A DNA stretch of 64,000 bases from Gilvimarinus algae (GTDB lineage Bacteria; Pseudomonadota; Gammaproteobacteria; Pseudomonadales; Cellvibrionaceae). The translations under genes were made by a program, and so were the position numbers. Position 1 is the stretch's first letter; every line of letters starts with the position of its first letter. The notes below the pieces were generated by a model. The model was not told the origin of the DNA. It saw only the letters and a list, made by a program, of their open reading frames with translations, and made no database searches. Location: assembly GCF_030518215.1 (NCBI RefSeq), contig NZ_JAULRT010000059.1, forward strand, positions 186,001 through 250,000. The letters run 5' to 3'. Shown one piece after another: positions 5,984 through 13,749 of this stretch.

Positions 5984-8900
5984 ATGGCTATGCAATTCAG
6001 TAAAAAACTGCTGAGTCTCGCGGTGTGTGCCGCGACGACAGGTTTGACACTTCCAGCGGCTTACGCTCAGGAAGACAACGGTGAGGAGTTGGTCGAAGAG
6101 GTTGTGGTTCGTGGCATGCGTGTCAGCGTGCAAAACGCGCAGGACATCAAGCGCAATGCCGATACCATCAAAGATGTGGTAACCGCATCTGACATTGGCG
6201 CTCTACCTGACAAGTCAGTGACGGAAGCGCTCCAGCGGGTACCGGGTGTTACCATTGAGCGCTTTGCCTCTTCCGATGACCCGAACCACTTTGCCGATGA
6301 AGGTACCGGCGTATTGGTTCGCGGCTTGGACCGCGTACGCAGCGAGATCAACGGACGCGGCGCTTTCAGCGCAAACCCCTGGGGTGGGCTGAATTACGAA
6401 GATTTCTCTCCCGAGCTTCTCGGTGCTGTAGAAGTCACCAAAAACCAAACGGCCGATATGTCAGCTGGTGGTATCGCAGGTACCGTGAACCTAATCACCC
6501 GCAAGCCCTTTGACTCGCCAGACATGATGTTTGGTGCCACCGTTAAGGGTAACTATGGCGACTTCCGTGAAGAGTGGAGCCCAACGGCCTCTGCGCTGTT
6601 CAGCGATCGCTGGGAAACCTCTGCTGGTGAGTTTGGCTTTTTGATCAGCGGTTCATACTCTGAGTTGTTGACTCGCGGCGATGGTGTTGGCGTTGCTAAC
6701 TTTTATTCCCGTGGTGACTCATTTATCGGGGATTACCTCGGTTGGGGGCCCGTCGCTTCGATTGATCCCGAAAGCCCGGTTGACGGCCCCGCTATCGGTG
6801 GTCAGGAACCAGGTACAGTCGTTTGGGTTCCAGGTCAGTACTCTATGCGGACGGCTGAAAACGACCGCGAGCGCGAAGGTCTAGCTACTTCATTGCAGTG
6901 GCAAAACACCGATGAGACGGTTATCGCAACGCTTGAGTACATTCGTTCAGATGCTTCTTTGACTTGGCGCGAAAGGGTTGTTGGTGCGCAGGCTCAAGGC
7001 TTCGACAGGGCTCCTCGTTCTCACCCGGCCTATTATGGTACTGAAGAGTACCCGATGAGCTTTGACGAGAATAATTTCTTTGAGCAGGGTGTGTACCGGT
7101 ATGTTGAGGACTCTATTTTACAGATGTCCTCGCGTTACAACTACAACAAGAATACCGTTGAGGATGCGTCGTTTAATTTAGAGCTTCGCCCCAATGATGA
7201 CCTGACCATTGAGTTGGACTACCAGCGTGTAGACTCAACCAACAAGGTTGAAAACTACGGTATTAACGCCAGGACTTTGTATGCCTATACCGATACTTAT
7301 GTGGATCTGACAGGTGATACTCCGACCTTTGAGTTTTTGAATGATGCTTTCTTCGATCAGGCCGTGTCACAAAACTGGGAAGGAAAGGACCAACATTCAC
7401 ATTTGCTTGGATCGGCGCTGGACCAAAATGTCGACTCAGATGCGACTTCTGACCGCTTCGCCTTGGATTTGGATTATCAAATCAGCGATGGCTGGGCGCG
7501 CAGTGTAAAAGTGGGGGTCGAGTACTCTGATAAAGACCTTACCATTCGCGATACAGAGTACAGCAACTGGGGTGCGCTGAATTACAGCTATGTGCCGGAG
7601 GCGACCGTTGCCGGTTCAGCCTTGACGAATCCCGACGAGTTTGAGACTGTCAATTTTGACGATTTCTACGATGGAAGCGCTTTGCTGGGGCGTACAGAGA
7701 TTCTGTTCCCGCGTATGAGTAATGCCGAGAACTTTACCGACTTCGTGCGCCGTGGCTGTGAGCAGGGTTTTAATACGGCCAACTACGGTGGCGCCGGTGG
7801 CGAGAACCCGGGTCAAAACAACCCGAACTGTTACCTCGCGCAAGCTGATCTGGGTGACCGTATTCCGGGCACTGTCTACGCGCCTCACCAAATCACAGGC
7901 TCCAATGAAGAGCGTGCAGAGGCTTATGCCCGGTTTGACTTTGCTTTTGATGACTGGGCAGTGCCGGTACGAGGTAATGTCGGTCTTCGCTATGTAAGCT
8001 ACAAACTCGAGTCTTCAGGCTTTACCAATCTGCCAGATCGCCCGACAACAGATGGTCAGGGGGCAGATGTAGGTGCCATTTTTGCCGACACCTACCCGGA
8101 TGCTTACGAGTGGGCTGACGGCGAGGGTCAGGCGACAACAGTCAAAGGCACGGATTATTCTACCGTTTTGCCGAGCTTAAACCTGGCAGCCAACTTGACT
8201 GAAGACTTGATCTTGCGGTTTGGTCTGTCTAAAGGTTTGTACTTCCCAGGTTTGCAAGATACCCGTAACTCGAAAGTGATTTCCATGAGTTTCGATAGTA
8301 TTCGCGAAACTCAAGACGGACCGGTTACGGCTGTTACTAACCTGCAAATTTCGGGTATCGCGCGCAATCCAAATCTCCAGCCTGAAGAGGCGATCAACAC
8401 GGACCTTAGCCTCGAATGGTACTTCGCGGACGCGGGTTCATTGAGCATGGCGGTGTTTAATAAAGATATTGATCATCTCTTCCGTGAGCGTAGCTTTATT
8501 GAAGAAGTGCCTAATGTCAGAAACGGAACAGCGCAAACAGTGACCTTCACCGGCCCCGCCAACGAAGGCTCTGGTAGTATCCGTGGCTTTGAATTGTCCT
8601 ATAGTCAATTCTATGACTTCCTGCCGGGCATTCTGAGCGGTTTGGGCTTACAGATGAACTATACCTACATCGATCAGGATGACCTGAACGATAAGGTTGA
8701 CGGCTCCCAGGTAGGTCAAATCCGATACGATACCGGCGGTAATCCGATTTATGATGACCGTGCTAACTTCCGCGCATTCAGTAACTTGCCTCTGCCGGGT
8801 TATTCCGATGAGAACTACAACATCATCGGTATGTATGAGTATGCGGATATTTCGGCTCGTGTGGCTTATACTTGGCGCTCTGAGTTCATGGTGACTCGAC

Positions 8901-9127
8901 GTGATTCGAATGAGTTTGCCCCGGTTTATCAAACTGACTACGGCCAGTTGGATGCTTCTATTTTCTACAACATTACCGACAATATTAAAGTTGGCTTGGA
9001 AGGTACTAACTTGACCAACGAGGTAACGACAACAGAAGTGCAGTACAATCAGGAAGGAGATAGAACACAATCTCTTAACTTCTTGACTGATCGCCGCTAC
9101 GCCGTTAGTTTGCAAGTGACCTTCTAA
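5984..9127 (+). CDS. TonB-dependent receptor (Xanthomonas/Caulobacter-type carbohydrate receptor)
   Basis: An outer-membrane active transporter of 1047 residues, counted from the ATG preceded by AGAAGGA. The signal peptide ends near LPAAYAQ (about residue 29). A TonB-box-like EEVVVRGMR follows, then a plug domain (about 50-165; SDIGALPDKSVTEALQRVPGVTIERF, then LVRGLDRVRSEINGRG) and a 22-strand barrel ending in an aromatic terminal residue (SLQVTF). The long loops and the GALPDKSV plug are typical of the subfamily that imports plant and algal oligosaccharides. It is followed by a terminator and then three halogenase-family genes, a neighbourhood seen at carbohydrate-induced receptor loci in Caulobacter and relatives. 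The upstream LacI-type palindrome also argues for a sugar ligand. The ligand itself cannot be read. Confidence 0.93.
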   Translation: MAMQFSKKLLSLAVCAATTGLTLPAAYAQEDNGEELVEEVVVRGMRVSVQNAQDIKRNADTIKDVVTASDIGALPDKSVTEALQRVPGVTIERFASSDDPNHFADEGTGVLVRGLDRVRSEINGRGAFSANPWGGLNYEDFSPELLGAVEVTKNQTADMSAGGIAGTVNLITRKPFDSPDMMFGATVKGNYGDFREEWSPTASALFSDRWETSAGEFGFLISGSYSELLTRGDGVGVANFYSRGDSFIGDYLGWGPVASIDPESPVDGPAIGGQEPGTVVWVPGQYSMRTAENDREREGLATSLQWQNTDETVIATLEYIRSDASLTWRERVVGAQAQGFDRAPRSHPAYYGTEEYPMSFDENNFFEQGVYRYVEDSILQMSSRYNYNKNTVEDASFNLELRPNDDLTIELDYQRVDSTNKVENYGINARTLYAYTDTYVDLTGDTPTFEFLNDAFFDQAVSQNWEGKDQHSHLLGSALDQNVDSDATSDRFALDLDYQISDGWARSVKVGVEYSDKDLTIRDTEYSNWGALNYSYVPEATVAGSALTNPDEFETVNFDDFYDGSALLGRTEILFPRMSNAENFTDFVRRGCEQGFNTANYGGAGGENPGQNNPNCYLAQADLGDRIPGTVYAPHQITGSNEERAEAYARFDFAFDDWAVPVRGNVGLRYVSYKLESSGFTNLPDRPTTDGQGADVGAIFADTYPDAYEWADGEGQATTVKGTDYSTVLPSLNLAANLTEDLILRFGLSKGLYFPGLQDTRNSKVISMSFDSIRETQDGPVTAVTNLQISGIARNPNLQPEEAINTDLSLEWYFADAGSLSMAVFNKDIDHLFRERSFIEEVPNVRNGTAQTVTFTGPANEGSGSIRGFELSYSQFYDFLPGILSGLGLQMNYTYIDQDDLNDKVDGSQVGQIRYDTGGNPIYDDRANFRAFSNLPLPGYSDENYNIIGMYEYADISARVAYTWRSEFMVTRRDSNEFAPVYQTDYGQLDASIFYNITDNIKVGLEGTNLTNEVTTTEVQYNQEGDRTQSLNFLTDRRYAVSLQVTF

Positions 9128-9147
9128 GAGAAGCAGTCTCTTTGAAG

Positions 9148-9183
9148 AAATGCGCGCCATGAAAGTGGCGCGCATTTTTTTTT
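9148..9183 (+). terminator. Rho-independent terminator after the TonB receptor
   Basis: A 12-base perfect stem (AAATGCGCGCCA / TGGCGCGCATTT) with a 6-base loop is followed by a run of T. It lies between the receptor and the halogenase-family operon. It may limit read-through so that the receptor is made in excess over the flavoproteins. Confidence 0.85.
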
Positions 9184-9224: not shown

Positions 9225-10769
9225 ATGGTTAAGCAATCGATCGTGATAGTGGGGGGAGGTACGGCAGGTTGGATGGCTGCCGCCGCGCTATCGAACAAGC
9301 TCAATCCATATTTGTATGATGTTACATTAATCGAGTCCGAGAAAATTGGTACTGTTGGGGTGGGTGAGGCAACTGTTCCGCATCTGCGCTACTTTAATGA
9401 TAGCCTAGGTATTGATGAGCGAGATTTTATTGCCAGAACAAATGCTACCTACAAGCTGGGAATTGAGTTTGTCGACTGGGGCAGTATAGGATCCTCTTAT
9501 GTTCATCCCTTTGGCCTTTTTGGTCGACCTCAAGGCGACATCAGCTTCCATCATTACTGGGTGAAAGCCCATAAGCTTGGTGCTGCCTTGCCCATCACCG
9601 ATTATAGTGTGGGTGCTGTTTCTGCTGAGCAAGAAAAATTCTCATACCCTACCGATGACCCCGATTCTTTGGCCTCAAAATTCAGTTACGCTTTCCATAT
9701 AGATGCGTCGTTGTATGCTGGTTACTTAAAAGAGTACGCGAAATCGAAAAGCGTAAAAAGACGAGAGGGAAAAATCGAAGCGGTAAAGACCAATGAAGAG
9801 GGCGATATAGAGAGCTTGACTCTAGATGACGGCACAAAAATCAACGGTGATTTTTTTGTCGATTGCTCTGGCTTTCGGTCTTTACTGTTGGGTCAAACAC
9901 TCAATGTTGATTTTGAGTCTTGGGCACACTGGCTTCCATGCGACAGGGCTGTCGCTGTCCCCTCAGAACGAAGCGGTGCCCCGATACCATATACCAAAGC
10001 AACGGCGAAGTCGGCAGGTTGGCAATGGCGTATACCTTTGCAGTCGCGTATCGGTAACGGATTGGTGTATTGCAGCAAGTACTTGTCGGATGAGGATGCT
10101 GAAAAAACTCTATTGTCAGGCTTAGATGGTGCGCCTTTGGCAGATTTGAACTTCTTGCGCTTCCGTGCTGGCCGTAGACGGTGCTCCTGGGCAAAGAATT
10201 GTGTGGCAGTAGGCCTATCCGGTGGTTTTCTCGAGCCTTTGGAATCTACAAGTATTTATTTGATTCAAGTTGCCATAACGAAGCTGCTGGATTATTTTCC
10301 TGGAATGCAGGACAGCTCTTATCTTCGCCAGCAATTTAACGCGGAGATGGAGGATGAGTATAAAAAAATTAGAGATTTTCTTATTCTCCACTATGTGGCA
10401 ACCAATCGGGATGATTCGGATTTTTGGCGTTATATTCGGTCCATGGAGTTGCCTGAGTCTTTGGAAAGAAAAATGAGACTTTTCTGTGAGCGAGGTGTGG
10501 TTGAGCAGTATGTAAAAGGCATGTTTCTTGAGCCTAGCTGGGTGGCTGTCTATTTGGGGCAGGGGATCGTGCCAGAAAACTACCACCCAGCCGTTGACTC
10601 TATGAGCGAAGATGAGTTAGTTCAAAGTCTTGATCGCTTAAAAACTGAGGTGCAACACCATGTAGAACTCATGAGTAGTCATGCAGACAGTCTCAATTTT
10701 TACGCAAGCGAAGAGAGTTTCAAGTCGTGGCCGCCGGGCGCAATGAGTTTATATGGGGTGTTTTCATGA
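9225..10769 (+). CDS. Tryptophan-halogenase-family flavoprotein, first of three
   Basis: A 514-residue member of the flavin-dependent tryptophan halogenase family (PF04820 type). It has the FAD-binding GGGTAGWM (residues 10-17), GVGEATVP (45-52), a lysine at residue 77 in TYKLGIEF matching the catalytic Lys79 of PrnA, the WxWxIP halogenase motif (GWQWRIPLQ), and GFLEPLEST with the conserved glutamate. By motif it could therefore form a hypohalous acid/chloramine intermediate. Relatives next to TonB receptors have no proven substrate, and some act on indoles or peptides. I use ATG 9225 rather than TTG 9213 because GGATAAG lies just before it. Its stop overlaps the next start (ATGA). The whole trio is more A/T-rich than its flanks. 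Confidence 0.9.
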   Translation: MVKQSIVIVGGGTAGWMAAAALSNKLNPYLYDVTLIESEKIGTVGVGEATVPHLRYFNDSLGIDERDFIARTNATYKLGIEFVDWGSIGSSYVHPFGLFGRPQGDISFHHYWVKAHKLGAALPITDYSVGAVSAEQEKFSYPTDDPDSLASKFSYAFHIDASLYAGYLKEYAKSKSVKRREGKIEAVKTNEEGDIESLTLDDGTKINGDFFVDCSGFRSLLLGQTLNVDFESWAHWLPCDRAVAVPSERSGAPIPYTKATAKSAGWQWRIPLQSRIGNGLVYCSKYLSDEDAEKTLLSGLDGAPLADLNFLRFRAGRRRCSWAKNCVAVGLSGGFLEPLESTSIYLIQVAITKLLDYFPGMQDSSYLRQQFNAEMEDEYKKIRDFLILHYVATNRDDSDFWRYIRSMELPESLERKMRLFCERGVVEQYVKGMFLEPSWVAVYLGQGIVPENYHPAVDSMSEDELVQSLDRLKTEVQHHVELMSSHADSLNFYASEESFKSWPPGAMSLYGVFS

Positions 10770-12259
10770 GCGCTGGCATACGAAAGTTGGTTATATGTGG
10801 AGGCGGCATTGAATCCTATACTTTGGCGCATCGGTTAAAAAAGCACTTTTCAGATTCTCTGTCTATAACTCTAATTGAGTCTGGAAATGTTTCCGAGCCT
10901 GCTTGCGTTTCTGTTCCACCTGCTGCGGTAAATTTTTTTACATCGCAAGGTGTTTCGGAGGACGTTCTGGTGGGTGAGGCGGGAGGCCTGTATCGCACCG
11001 CAGTTCTTCTTAAGTCCGTGAACCAAGGAAAGGACTTCTATTTACCATTTTCTCCCCCAGGCTTTATGCTTCATGCTCGTGACTTTCAGCATTTTTATGT
11101 GTGGGCACATAAGAAGGGGCTGGCGCACAGCTACGATGAGTTTTCTCTAAGTTCGATGTCCGCAAAGAGGCTTAAGTTTCTTCCCGCCTCTAAGGATGCT
11201 GGGTCATTGCTGTCGACGCTGAATCATGGTTACACATTAGATGTGACACGCCTAAAAGACTATCTTCGTTCTAAATTTCAATCTATGGGTGGTTCGATTG
11301 TTGATGGCGAAGTGAGCTCTGTGAGTCTGGATGCTGACGGTTGTATAGCTTGTTTAGATGTTCATGGGATCGATGATTCTTCAGTGGTTGGTGATTTTTA
11401 TATTGACTGTTCCGGCGAAGATAACAGTAATTTGTCGAGTGCGTTGAACGCTTCTTTTCTAAGTGAGAGGAAGTCCTTGCCTGTTGATTCGATCATAAGA
11501 TCGGTTTCCAGTTGCTCAGGCTCTTATCGTCCGTTTAGTTCTATTTCTCTGCAGGGGGCAGGATACATTATAGAGCAAAGTGCGCAGTATAAAAAACAAT
11601 CTGATTTTGTTTATAATAGTGGCGAACTATCCGATGAGGAAGCAGTGAATCTATTTTCTGAGTACATGCGTACCCCGCCTTCTGATCTAAAAAAGCTAAG
11701 CGGTCAATCAAAAAGACGGAATCAGTTTTGGGTAAAAAATTGCATTTTTATGGGGGCGTCATCAGGCTTTTTGCAAGATCCCTTTATGGGTACCTATTCG
11801 CTTTCTCAATCATCAATCTTGCGATTTATTAGCCTTTTCCCTAGCGCTAAAGAGTCCGCCCCTTTGGCAGAGGAATATAATCGATTAACTCATCTCGAGT
11901 ATGACTGTGTTGTTGATTTCCATTCATTGCTGTTTCGTGTTTTTGGTTTGAAAAGTGCTAATGCTCGGTCCGATAGTTTCTTGGGTGAAGCTGTCTCAGA
12001 TAGACTGAAATCCAGAGTGGATATGTTTAATCATACGGGTAGAGTGCCGTTTAGAGAGGGAGACCCTATATCGCAGGACTTATGGGTGTCTACCTTGCTT
12101 GGCAGCGGATTGGTGCCCAGAGCCTATGATATCTTGGTGGAGGGAATAGAACCAAAATGGATTGCTGATCAACTTAAGAAAATGTTTCAAATGATTGATG
12201 GCGCCTCTGCAAAGATGCCCTATCTCAAGGATTATATCGCTCAGGGGTCGGCTGTATGA
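10766..12259 (+). CDS. Degenerate halogenase-family paralogue lacking catalytic motifs
   Basis: A 497-residue protein that aligns by eye along its whole length with both neighbours, but with the key motifs replaced. The FAD motif GGGTAGW is GGGIESY (12-18), and GVGEAT is missing. The catalytic lysine position is Arg77 (GLYRTAVLL). WxWxIP is replaced by GYIIEQSAQ. The EPLEST glutamate is gone (FLQDPFMGT). The frame is intact, so it is not an ordinary decaying pseudogene. It overlaps both neighbours by ATGA, implying stoichiometric translation. It probably does not halogenate and may be a structural or regulatory partner of the other two. That role is inference. The ATG at 10766 is chosen for the coupling and because the longer frame adds no conserved sequence. 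Confidence 0.8.
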   Translation: MSAGIRKLVICGGGIESYTLAHRLKKHFSDSLSITLIESGNVSEPACVSVPPAAVNFFTSQGVSEDVLVGEAGGLYRTAVLLKSVNQGKDFYLPFSPPGFMLHARDFQHFYVWAHKKGLAHSYDEFSLSSMSAKRLKFLPASKDAGSLLSTLNHGYTLDVTRLKDYLRSKFQSMGGSIVDGEVSSVSLDADGCIACLDVHGIDDSSVVGDFYIDCSGEDNSNLSSALNASFLSERKSLPVDSIIRSVSSCSGSYRPFSSISLQGAGYIIEQSAQYKKQSDFVYNSGELSDEEAVNLFSEYMRTPPSDLKKLSGQSKRRNQFWVKNCIFMGASSGFLQDPFMGTYSLSQSSILRFISLFPSAKESAPLAEEYNRLTHLEYDCVVDFHSLLFRVFGLKSANARSDSFLGEAVSDRLKSRVDMFNHTGRVPFREGDPISQDLWVSTLLGSGLVPRAYDILVEGIEPKWIADQLKKMFQMIDGASAKMPYLKDYIAQGSAV

Positions 12260-13749
12260 TAATGCCCTGGAAACGCATTGTGATCGCCGGTGGAGGTACA
12301 GCCGGCTGGATGGTCGCTGCAGCTCTGGCTCGAGTCTTTGGTAAGTCAGGCTATGAGATTACTCTGGTCGAGTCTCCCGATATTGGACCTGTTGGAGTGG
12401 GTGAGGCAACCATACCGCCTTTGATTGCCTTTAATCGGATGCTGGGGTTAAACGAGCAGGAGTTTATCCGTCAAACCAAAGCTACCTTTAAGCTGGGGAT
12501 AGAGTTCGTGGACTGGAGGTCCGCTGGCGAGCGCTATTTTCATGGTTTTGGTGGATTTGGCACCGCAGCGCAGGGTGTGCCTTTCTATCACTACTGGTTA
12601 AAGTGGAAAAAGGAGAATCCAAACTCAGATTTATCGGATTTCTCTGTCACAGCAAGCAGCGCACGATCGCAGAAGTTTATTCATCCCGACTCTCGCGGTG
12701 CAGCGGCCATCGCCAATATGCGCTACGCTTACCATATCGATGCAGGACTCTATGCGTCTTATCTTAAACACTTTGCTATTGCTCTAGGTGTAAAACACGT
12801 ACAAGATGAAATCCTTGATGTTTGTCTAAGACCTGACAATGGCTTTATTGAAGCTCTGCAGTTAAAGAGCAGCAATGCTCTGCAAGGTGATTTTTTTGTC
12901 GATTGCACAGGCTTCAAGTCCCTTCTGTTGGGCAAGGCTCTGGGGATTCCGTACACGACTTGGGGCGAGTGGTTACTGTGTGACAGTGCGCTCGCCGTAG
13001 CGTCAAATCATGCCAGCGAAGCGATATCCCCCTATACGACTGCAATTGCGCACAGCGCCGGTTGGCAGTGGCGCATCCCTCTTCAGCACCGCCTTGGTAA
13101 CGGTCTAGTTTATTCCAGTAGCCATCTCGATCATGATGCCGCGCAAACTCTTCTTCTAAGCCGTATTGAAGGTGAGCCTCTTTCCGGTATGAAAAATATT
13201 AGATTCACTCCTGGTGTCCGGAAGAAGGCATGGGAAAAGAACTGTCTGGCCGTTGGATTGTCCTCGGGGTTTGTTGAGCCGCTGGAATCAACTAGTATCC
13301 ATTTGATCCAGTCGGCAATCAGTAGGCTTGTTCAATTGTTTCCTGATGCCGATACTAATGAGGTGTTGGCTAGGCAGTTCAACAGAGATTTCTCGAGCGA
13401 TATGGAGGAAGTTCGAGACTTTATTATTCTCCATTATTGCCTGACAGAGCGAGTCGGTGACCCGTTTTGGGAGCGCTGTCGAACTATGTCGTTGCCTGAC
13501 AGTTTGCAGGAGAAATTAGAACTTTTCAGATGCTCAGGCCGACTTATCTATGAACAGAAGAATGTTTTCACAGACATCAATTGGGTAAGTGTGCTCATCG
13601 GCCAGGGGGTGCTTCCAGCCTCTCATAGTCCGCTGGTGGATGGCATTCCGCTGAGAAATTTGCAAACCTTTATGGAGAAAACCCGCTCTGAGATCGCCGC
13701 AGCAGTTGATACTATGCCGTCGCACCAATCGTTTTTGGCGCGCTTGTAA
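12256..13749 (+). CDS. Tryptophan-halogenase-family flavoprotein, third of three
   Basis: A 497-residue flavin-dependent halogenase-family protein with all expected motifs: GGGTAGWM (12-19), GVGEATIPP (47-55), Lys79 in the segment TFKLGIEFVDW, GWQWRIPLQHRLGNGLVYSS, and GFVEPLESTSIHLIQ. It resembles the first gene of the trio more than the middle one. It starts inside the stop codon of the middle gene (ATGATAATG; Met3 is an alternative start). No flavin reductase, SapC-like or cupin gene follows, although FADH2 must come from somewhere. Halide or substrate specificity is not visible. A monooxygenase-like role in modifying an imported ligand is an alternative. Confidence 0.9.
   Translation: MIMPWKRIVIAGGGTAGWMVAAALARVFGKSGYEITLVESPDIGPVGVGEATIPPLIAFNRMLGLNEQEFIRQTKATFKLGIEFVDWRSAGERYFHGFGGFGTAAQGVPFYHYWLKWKKENPNSDLSDFSVTASSARSQKFIHPDSRGAAAIANMRYAYHIDAGLYASYLKHFAIALGVKHVQDEILDVCLRPDNGFIEALQLKSSNALQGDFFVDCTGFKSLLLGKALGIPYTTWGEWLLCDSALAVASNHASEAISPYTTAIAHSAGWQWRIPLQHRLGNGLVYSSSHLDHDAAQTLLLSRIEGEPLSGMKNIRFTPGVRKKAWEKNCLAVGLSSGFVEPLESTSIHLIQSAISRLVQLFPDADTNEVLARQFNRDFSSDMEEVRDFIILHYCLTERVGDPFWERCRTMSLPDSLQEKLELFRCSGRLIYEQKNVFTDINWVSVLIGQGVLPASHSPLVDGIPLRNLQTFMEKTRSEIAAAVDTMPSHQSFLARL

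What the first reader, a model, noticed from the sequence alone, without database searches (positions are those of the whole stretch)
9225..13749. Three coupled halogenase-family genes with a catalytically dead-looking middle member
Two intact tryptophan-halogenase-family proteins flank a full-length paralogue that has lost every motif I can align: GGGTAGW to GGGIESY, GVGEAT absent, catalytic Lys to Arg77, WxWxIP to YxIxQS, and the EPLEST Glu lost. All three starts are ATGA-coupled, so the dead copy is made with the others. This looks like a hetero-oligomer with a pseudoenzyme subunit, or a scaffold that delivers FADH2 or substrate. Flavin halogenase families are known; a maintained non-catalytic third subunit is, to my knowledge, not described.
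Basis: partly seen in the sequence, partly recalled or inferred. Interest (0 to 1): 0.75.

Follow-up and report, generated by a model that had tools for sequence, protein, structure and literature searches.

The report
Dead halogenase paired with live one
Next to a working-looking bacterial halogenase gene sits a relative that has lost the parts needed for the reaction, and the same pairing is kept in many other bacteria, which suggests the broken-looking protein is a helper part of the enzyme.

Summary
Three PF04820 genes follow a TonB-dependent receptor (TBDR) in a Gilvimarinus genome; the middle protein (X) is full length but lacks the catalytic Lys and Glu, GVGEAT and WxWxIP. Two of the three starts, not all, are ATGA-coupled. 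X is no local accident: the genome has a second such triplet, and X-like genes follow HalA-type halogenases in Cellvibrionaceae, other Gammaproteobacteria and Alphaproteobacteria. Of 70 distinct HalA genes read in fetched loci, 69 have X directly downstream and one runs off its stretch; in a phylum-wide sample, 14 of 14. HalB is optional, so X pairs with HalA rather than belonging to an obligate trio. Of 79 full-length X's none keeps both Lys and Glu; X evolves faster than HalA but under purifying selection. AlphaFold gives X a confident halogenase fold. Three short X's lack the region with WxWxIP yet keep the helical part. Best reading: X is a conserved pseudo-halogenase subunit of HalA. The physical complex is inferred, and a coevolution test gave it no support. 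A single-cluster precedent (Ams8/Ams9) was published in 2026; my searches of open papers showed no description of this family.

The parts
5984..9127 (+). TonB-dependent receptor (TIGR01782 group) upstream of the halogenases
   Evidence: Pfam PF00593 and PF07715; NCBIfam TIGR01782 608 bits, cut-off 310
9144..9181 (+). terminator-like hairpin with a T run between the TBDR and HalA
   Evidence: fold -27.1 kcal/mol, z -6.6, 0 of 200 shuffles as stable; not listed by the consensus scan
9225..10769 (+). HalA, halogenase with all catalytic motifs (514 aa)
   Evidence: PF04820 616 bits; motifs intact; groups with the other HalA in the tree
10766..10769 (+). ATGA overlap of HalA stop and X start
   Evidence: sequence, translations
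10766..12259 (+). X, pseudo-halogenase (497 aa): full-length halogenase fold without catalytic Lys, Glu, WxWxIP or FAD-loop motif
   Evidence: PF04820 210 bits; motif tables; AlphaFold2 pLDDT 90.9, pTM 0.90; best solved match BrvH 6frl, TM 0.90, 25% identity
12256..12259 (+). ATGA overlap of X stop and HalB start
   Evidence: sequence, translations
12256..13749 (+). HalB, second halogenase with all catalytic motifs (497 aa)
   Evidence: PF04820 596 bits; motifs intact. In the tree this HalB does not sit with most other HalB

Best explanation
X is a conserved, non-catalytic pseudo-halogenase that works as a partner subunit of the active halogenase HalA. It arose from an old halogenase duplication and was kept while the catalytic constraints were lost. 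The likely mechanism is that X takes the place of the second protomer in the usual halogenase dimer. There, its helical pyramid subdomain would nest against that of HalA next to HalA's substrate opening, stabilise HalA, and shape or gate the access of the (unknown) substrate. Shown here: A-X pairing and order, loss of catalytic residues, purifying selection, predicted fold, and loss of the WxWxIP region but not of the helical part in three short X's. Inferred: physical complex, 1:1 stoichiometry, position at the dimer interface, role in substrate access.
For: Pairing: 69 of 70 distinct HalA genes in fetched loci (window not counted) have X directly downstream; the other, L222, ends 54 nt before the end of its stretch. 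37 of the 70 (36 with X) came from regions picked from the HalA score list without looking for X, with loci in hand skipped and picks by eye below about 770 bits. Phylum sample: 14 of 14 HalA genes in the 20 regions fetched, one of them the same locus as L102. The 6 regions there with only HalB/C types have no X. A-X is the kept module: A-X without HalB, A-X opposite B-C, tandem A-X-A-X-B. A-X overlap or abut in 60 of 69 by longest-ORF starts. Motifs: of 79 full-length X, 0 keep both Lys and Glu, 0 keep W-W-P of WxWxIP, 1 keeps GxGE; of 83 HalA, 83 keep Lys, Glu and GxGE and 82 W-W-P. Selection: NG86 ratio 0.066-0.171 for X in the three pairs with dS 0.27-1.76. In a 90-row tree the 21 X's form one side of a branch, SH-aLRT 100. 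Fold. Three X's of 337-368 aa lack HalA positions about 218-321; one of them is predicted to fold well, pLDDT 90.5. In relatives: K83A abolishes BrvH activity and BrvH elutes as a dimer (PMC5945002, passages); pyramids nest at the halogenase dimer interface (PMC11840605, passage); in Thal the substrate-binding loop lies there (PMC6863734, passage).
Against: No complex was predicted or measured. Column coupling in 60 A-X-B triples (effective number 54) showed no excess of helical-helical A-X pairs: 21 in the top 100 against 19.2 expected, while A-B gave 40 against 22.4 and X-B 29 against 19.3; that test does not favour an A-X interface and leans, if at all, to A-B. Some relatives are reported as monomers or probable monomers in solution (Xcc4156, AbeH). 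WxWxIP is absent from some active halogenases (PMC8407142, passage), so its loss alone proves nothing. 11 of 79 X keep the Lys and 4 of 79 the Glu. Close pairs with few changes give higher ratios for X, 0.31-0.44 NG86 and 0.41-0.52 YN00. X's are very divergent (13-28% between most clades), so one origin may be helped by long-branch attraction. One locus (L136) has X behind a halogenase that is not clearly HalA (768 against 775 bits).
Confidence: 0.58

Rival explanations
1. X is a catalytically active flavoprotein with a different chemistry (for example a monooxygenase or a supplier of reduced flavin), not a pseudoenzyme.
For: The first Gly of the Rossmann motif is kept in 99% and the Asp of DxSG in 97% of 79 X's; 21 of 79 keep GxGxxG strictly; window X keeps the Glu at the end of strand 2.
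Against: At a 60% threshold the positions where X has its own preferred residue are hydrophobic or small, apart from a Tyr where HalA prefers Phe (position 371), so no shared new catalytic residue shows. The residue at the end of strand 2 is Glu in only 29 and Asp in 14 of 79. Three short X's lack the region with WxWxIP.
Confidence: 0.15
2. X is an adaptor or sensor that binds something other than HalA, such as the imported substrate, HalB, or a protein that the halogenases modify.
For: Setting in glycan-uptake loci: TBDR directly upstream of 53 of 83 HalA by one query sequence; GH97, GH18, CBM15 and aldose epimerase neighbours at some loci. X diverges much faster than HalA: lower identity in 3081 of 3081 locus pairs. 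Column coupling, if anything, favours A-B and X-B over A-X.
Against: The tight link is to HalA; A-X occurs without HalB, and in several loci without a TBDR directly upstream.
Confidence: 0.2
3. X is a decaying duplicate kept only because it sits inside an operon.
For: L198 (G018) has X split into two ORFs, but HalB there is split too; X has the highest NG86 dN/dS of the three genes in each of the six pairs computed.
Against: Of 83 X's read, 79 are 420 aa or longer, over two classes of bacteria; dN/dS is below 1 in each pair computed; X is kept where HalB is absent; confident fold.
Confidence: 0.03

Closest known systems
BrvH (6frl), Xcc4156 (6y1w) and Pseudoalteromonas L11 halogenase (9luq), PF04820
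   Same: Same fold and family; best solved matches of HalA and of X. Native substrates of BrvH and the Xcc enzymes are stated to be unknown (PMC7336383, passage).
   Different: BrvH and 9luq keep the catalytic motifs in the printed alignments; BrvH K83A is inactive, and X lacks that Lys. BrvH and 9luq fit neither the HalA nor the HalB profile clearly.
Ams8/Ams9 of armeniaspirol biosynthesis (PMC13311259; passages)
   Same: A halogenase-like protein without the catalytic Lys, predicted to pair with an active halogenase and to act as an auxiliary protein; deletion of ams8 abolishes the biosynthesis.
   Different: One antibiotic cluster, in a pathway with PltA-like, carrier-bound halogenation, not TBDR loci; not a family traced through many genomes. 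Ams8 was not compared with X here.
Ketosynthase-chain length factor (KS-CLF) pairs (as described in PMC13311259, passage)
   Same: Active enzyme plus homologue without catalytic residues, with a tunnel formed by the complex.
   Different: Different family and chemistry; the complex is solved there, only inferred here.
KtzQ/KtzR (PMC8407142, passage)
   Same: Two halogenases acting in one pathway.
   Different: Both are active, with no dead member.

Membership tests
Flavin-dependent halogenase (PF04820): claim for X | Family profile match over its length | tested here: met
   210 bits, profile 1-454 of 458, cut-off 21
Flavin-dependent halogenase (PF04820): claim for X | Halogenase fold | tested here: met
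   predicted model, pLDDT 90.9; TM 0.90 to BrvH
Flavin-dependent halogenase (PF04820): claim for X | Catalytic Lys (K79 PrnA) and Glu (E346 PrnA) | tested here: not met
   Window X has Arg and Phe there by alignment; 0 of 79 full-length X keep both
Flavin-dependent halogenase (PF04820): claim for X | WxWxIP | tested here: not met
   0 of 79 X keep W, W and P; some active halogenases lack it too
Flavin-dependent halogenase (PF04820): claim for X | GxGxxG and FAD-binding loop GVGEAT | tested here: not met
   Window X GGGIESY and no GVGEAT; 21 of 79 X keep GxGxxG, 1 of 79 GxGE
Flavin-dependent halogenase (PF04820): claim for X | Halogenase activity | not testable with these tools
   needs purified protein
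Flavin-dependent halogenase: claim for HalA and HalB | GxGxxG, GVGEAT, Lys, WxWxIP, EPLEST | tested here: met
   all present in both
Dead-plus-live halogenase pair of the Ams8/Ams9 kind | One member without catalytic Lys, partner intact | tested here: met
   window; 68 of 79 X's lack the Lys by alignment
Dead-plus-live halogenase pair of the Ams8/Ams9 kind | Predicted or measured heterodimer | not testable with these tools
   no complex prediction offered; coevolution test gave no support
Dead-plus-live halogenase pair of the Ams8/Ams9 kind | Dead member needed in vivo | not testable with these tools
   only indirect: purifying selection, co-occurrence

The most novel reading that the evidence does not exclude
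A whole clade of proteobacterial halogenases (HalA) is an obligate heterodimer with a fast-evolving pseudo-halogenase that supplies substrate specificity, so that enzymes of this clade assayed alone would lack their specificity subunit.
Probability: 0.4. Interest if true: 0.8.

Novelty: new variant of a known kind. Interest (0 to 1): 0.62.

Why it matters
PF04820 genes are very common in these bacteria (16-25 matches in each of 8 Gilvimarinus genomes), while the native substrates of the characterised relatives BrvH and the Xcc enzymes are stated to be unknown (PMC7336383, passage). If HalA works only with X, that gives a direct, cheap test (co-expression) for finding activity, and a case where a pseudoenzyme evolved inside an enzyme family that forms dimers and was kept across two bacterial classes.

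Tried and rejected
Decay of X: disfavoured by dN/dS, length and distribution. Triplet as the obligate unit: rejected, since HalB can be absent or on the other strand. X scan of named genomes with the single protein P0002: 40 stretches matched a pattern, none confirmed; a HalB alignment was used instead. Coevolution of A-X columns: no support. The first tree contained one badly cut row (Sphgell_L137_B) and very long X branches, and X needed 2 changes on it; short X's (L102, L140, L071) and loci read twice were left out. A second tree left out the bad row, 6 of the longest X's, 2 near-duplicate X's and most background rows; there X needs 1 change. In high-GC loci my first gene picking by length hid genes under antisense ORFs; it was repeated with profile hits. 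Gene starts in the scripts are the longest ORF starts, so overlaps larger than about 80 nt are probably start miscalls and the overlap counts are upper bounds. A second look at structures (library pdb_via) was not available.
Full report
Observation. The three ORFs are real and at the stated places. HalA (9225-10769) and HalB (12256-13749) carry the halogenase motifs; the middle protein X (10766-12259) matches PF04820 nearly end to end with 210 bits against 616 and 596 for its neighbours. X has GGGIESY for GGGTAGW, no GVGEAT, Arg for the catalytic Lys, YIIEQS for WQWRIP and Phe at the position of the catalytic Glu of EPLEST. The catalytic roles (K79, E346 of PrnA; K83, E349 of BrvH) are as stated in PMC5945002 (passages). 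Two couplings, not three, are ATGA overlaps; HalA follows the TBDR after 97 nt containing a strong terminator-like hairpin.

Surroundings. The gene upstream is a TBDR of the TIGR01782 group. The window lies in a genome of 4.2 Mb with 23 PF04820 matches. The genus is taken to be Gilvimarinus: G002, same genus, has a contig of the same length, 376637, as the named record of G. xylanilyticus HB14; NCBI places Gilvimarinus in Cellvibrionaceae, Gammaproteobacteria. A second triplet with a weak middle member (193 bits) lies at G000:C23:103484-107881. In the 8 genomes of the genus the listing (which was capped) shows 10 low-scoring middle members, each between two strong halogenases on the same strand about 3 kb apart start to start, at least one per genome. 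Other low-scoring matches in that list (short pieces or frames of about 420 aa, 42-65 bits) were not followed.

Spread. Of 80 named loci found with a HalB alignment (capped at 80), 22 have an X-type hit, among them Gilvimarinus, Cellvibrio, Aestuariibacter, Glaciecola, Aliiglaciecola, Asticcacaulis, Caulobacter, Aquisalinus, Sphingorhabdus, Sphingomonas and Erythrobacter. Aestuariibacter is a gammaproteobacterium and Asticcacaulis an alphaproteobacterium; the classes of the others are recalled. From that list I fetched 39 regions plus one stray, going down the score list, skipping loci in hand, and picking by eye below about 770 bits. Counting the fetched loci up to then, without the window, there are 70 distinct HalA genes; 69 have X directly downstream. 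L222 stops 54 nt after HalA at the end of the fetched stretch, while L213, the start of the same contig, begins with part of an X. A phylum-wide sample of 397 genomes gave 81 with a match. Lower-scoring matches were not examined. The HalA profile was itself built from triplets, so the two score-chosen samples (36 of 37 and 14 of 14) are the fairer test.

Which partner. HalB is often absent: A-X stands with no HalB in the fetched stretch in, for example, L186, L190, L193, L217, L221, L266, L268, L269 and L272. In L152, L203, L264, L270 and L271, and in L133 with a partial HalA ORF, A-X lies on the opposite strand from the HalB-type gene or genes. L219 reads A-X-A-X-B, and L067 reads A-X-halogenase-X-B, where the middle halogenase groups with HalA in the tree. 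In 60 of 69 cases A and X overlap or abut, 23 of them by exactly 4 nt, by longest-ORF starts. One MAG locus, L136, has X behind a halogenase that scores about equally as HalA and HalB (768 and 775 bits); apart from stretches cut at a contig end (L130, L213) and L133, it is the only fetched locus of those scored with X and no clear HalA (L272's HalA scores just 700). So X belongs to HalA.

Is X dead, and kept? Among 79 full-length X's (of 83; four under 420 aa left out), 0 keep both Lys and Glu (11 keep Lys, 4 Glu), 0 keep W, W and P of WxWxIP, 1 keeps GxGE, and 0 keep F, P and S of the tunnel motif; of 83 HalA all keep Lys, Glu, GxGE and the tunnel residues, and 82 W, W and P. The tunnel motif and the caution that WxWxIP is missing in some active enzymes are from PMC8407142 (passages). 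At 60% no polar residue is conserved in X that HalA lacks, apart from a Tyr/Phe preference at position 371, which speaks against a shared new chemistry. X identity is below HalA identity in all 3081 locus pairs (medians 22% and 49%). dN/dS for X is below 1 in the six of ten pairs where it could be computed: NG86 0.160, 0.171 and 0.066 at dS 1.02, 0.27 and 1.76, against 0.095/0.054/0.046 for HalA and 0.043/0.041/0.027 for HalB; three closer pairs with dS under 0.14 for X gave 0.31-0.44 (HalA 0.30, 0.04 and 0.10; HalB 0.10, 0.06 and 0.11); four pairs were saturated.

Structure. AlphaFold2 on window X, with 17 X's from named loci and 14 active-type halogenases as alignment, gave pLDDT 90.9 and pTM 0.90; the best solved match is BrvH, TM 0.90 at 25% identity. 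Three X's (L102, L140, L254; 337-368 aa; possibly one event in related bacteria) lack HalA positions about 218-321, the stretch with WxWxIP, while keeping the Rossmann part and the C-terminal helices; L140's is predicted to fold at pLDDT 90.5. Entropy rises from HalA to X by less in the helical segments (101-150, 351-500) than elsewhere, mostly because those segments already vary in HalA; that they are the 'pyramid' is my inference. In solved halogenases the pyramids nest at the dimer interface (PMC11840605, passage), with the substrate-binding loop at that interface in Thal (PMC6863734, passage). This is the ground for placing X there; it is not shown.

Tree. In 133 rows (quick IQ-TREE) the X's lie apart from the active halogenases (X needs 2 changes, with one badly cut HalB row at the root), and the same sets of loci group together among A, X and B, for example L127/L128/L150/G004/G003a/G007 and L094/L129/L105/L108. 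In a cleaned 90-row tree the 21 X's kept are one side of a branch at SH-aLRT 100. Long branches make this compatible with, not proof of, one origin.

Against. No complex was tested. Coupling between columns in 60 triples (effective 54) gave no excess for A-X helical pairs (21 of 100 against 19.2 expected), more for A-B (40 against 22.4) and X-B (29 against 19.3); at this depth it is weak, but it does not help. Window X is itself one of the more divergent members (16-28% to the others).

Known work. In the held library of open-licence papers, 'halogenase' with 'pseudoenzyme' found 0 papers and 'tryptophan halogenase' with 'Gilvimarinus' 0. Searches on halogenases with TonB-dependent receptors, SapC, BrvH, polysaccharide utilization, dimer interface, heterodimer, KrmI and 'catalytically inactive' showed no description of this family in the listings; several listings were partial (15 of 28, 15 of 238, 10 of 11, 10 of 57 and 12 of 16 papers). 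I saw passages only, of eight papers. The genome survey PMC8269204 does not contain the words TonB, operon or adjacent. The nearest precedent is PMC13311259 (passages): Ams8, a halogenase-like protein without the Lys, is predicted to pair with active Ams9. So the idea of a dead halogenase subunit has one published, predicted case; the widespread X family and its fixed pairing with HalA appear to be new as far as these searches reach.

Verdict. Ordinary parts, unusual combination: a conserved pseudo-halogenase tied to one clade of active halogenases, often in TBDR-linked loci. My estimate is about 0.9 for pseudoenzyme status and 0.55-0.6 for a HalA heteromer as its mode of action.

Noticed in passing
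9144-9181: Very stable hairpin with T run between TBDR and HalA that the consensus scan did not list; it may set halogenase expression below that of the receptor.
   Followed up: partly
own genome and 7 relatives: 16-25 PF04820 matches per Gilvimarinus genome, including a recurring convergent pair (e.g. G000:C26:182104+ and 183745-) and a lower-scoring second type near SapC-like and cupin-like genes (the last two names are recalled, not tested).
   Followed up: no
L102, L140, L254: Short X proteins (337-368 aa) that lack the WxWxIP region.
   Followed up: yes
L198, from 6266 to about 9260: X and HalB each split into two ORFs in one genome (G018); damage or assembly error not resolved.
   Followed up: no
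L190, L193, L221, L054, L064: A-X loci beside GH18 with an AraC-type regulator, GH97, a CBM15 protein, or aldose epimerase and a xylose-isomerase-like protein (L193 by similarity of gene lengths only).
   Followed up: partly
L136 7308-12010: Odd order: second-type halogenase, then an A/B-ambiguous halogenase, then X.
   Followed up: no
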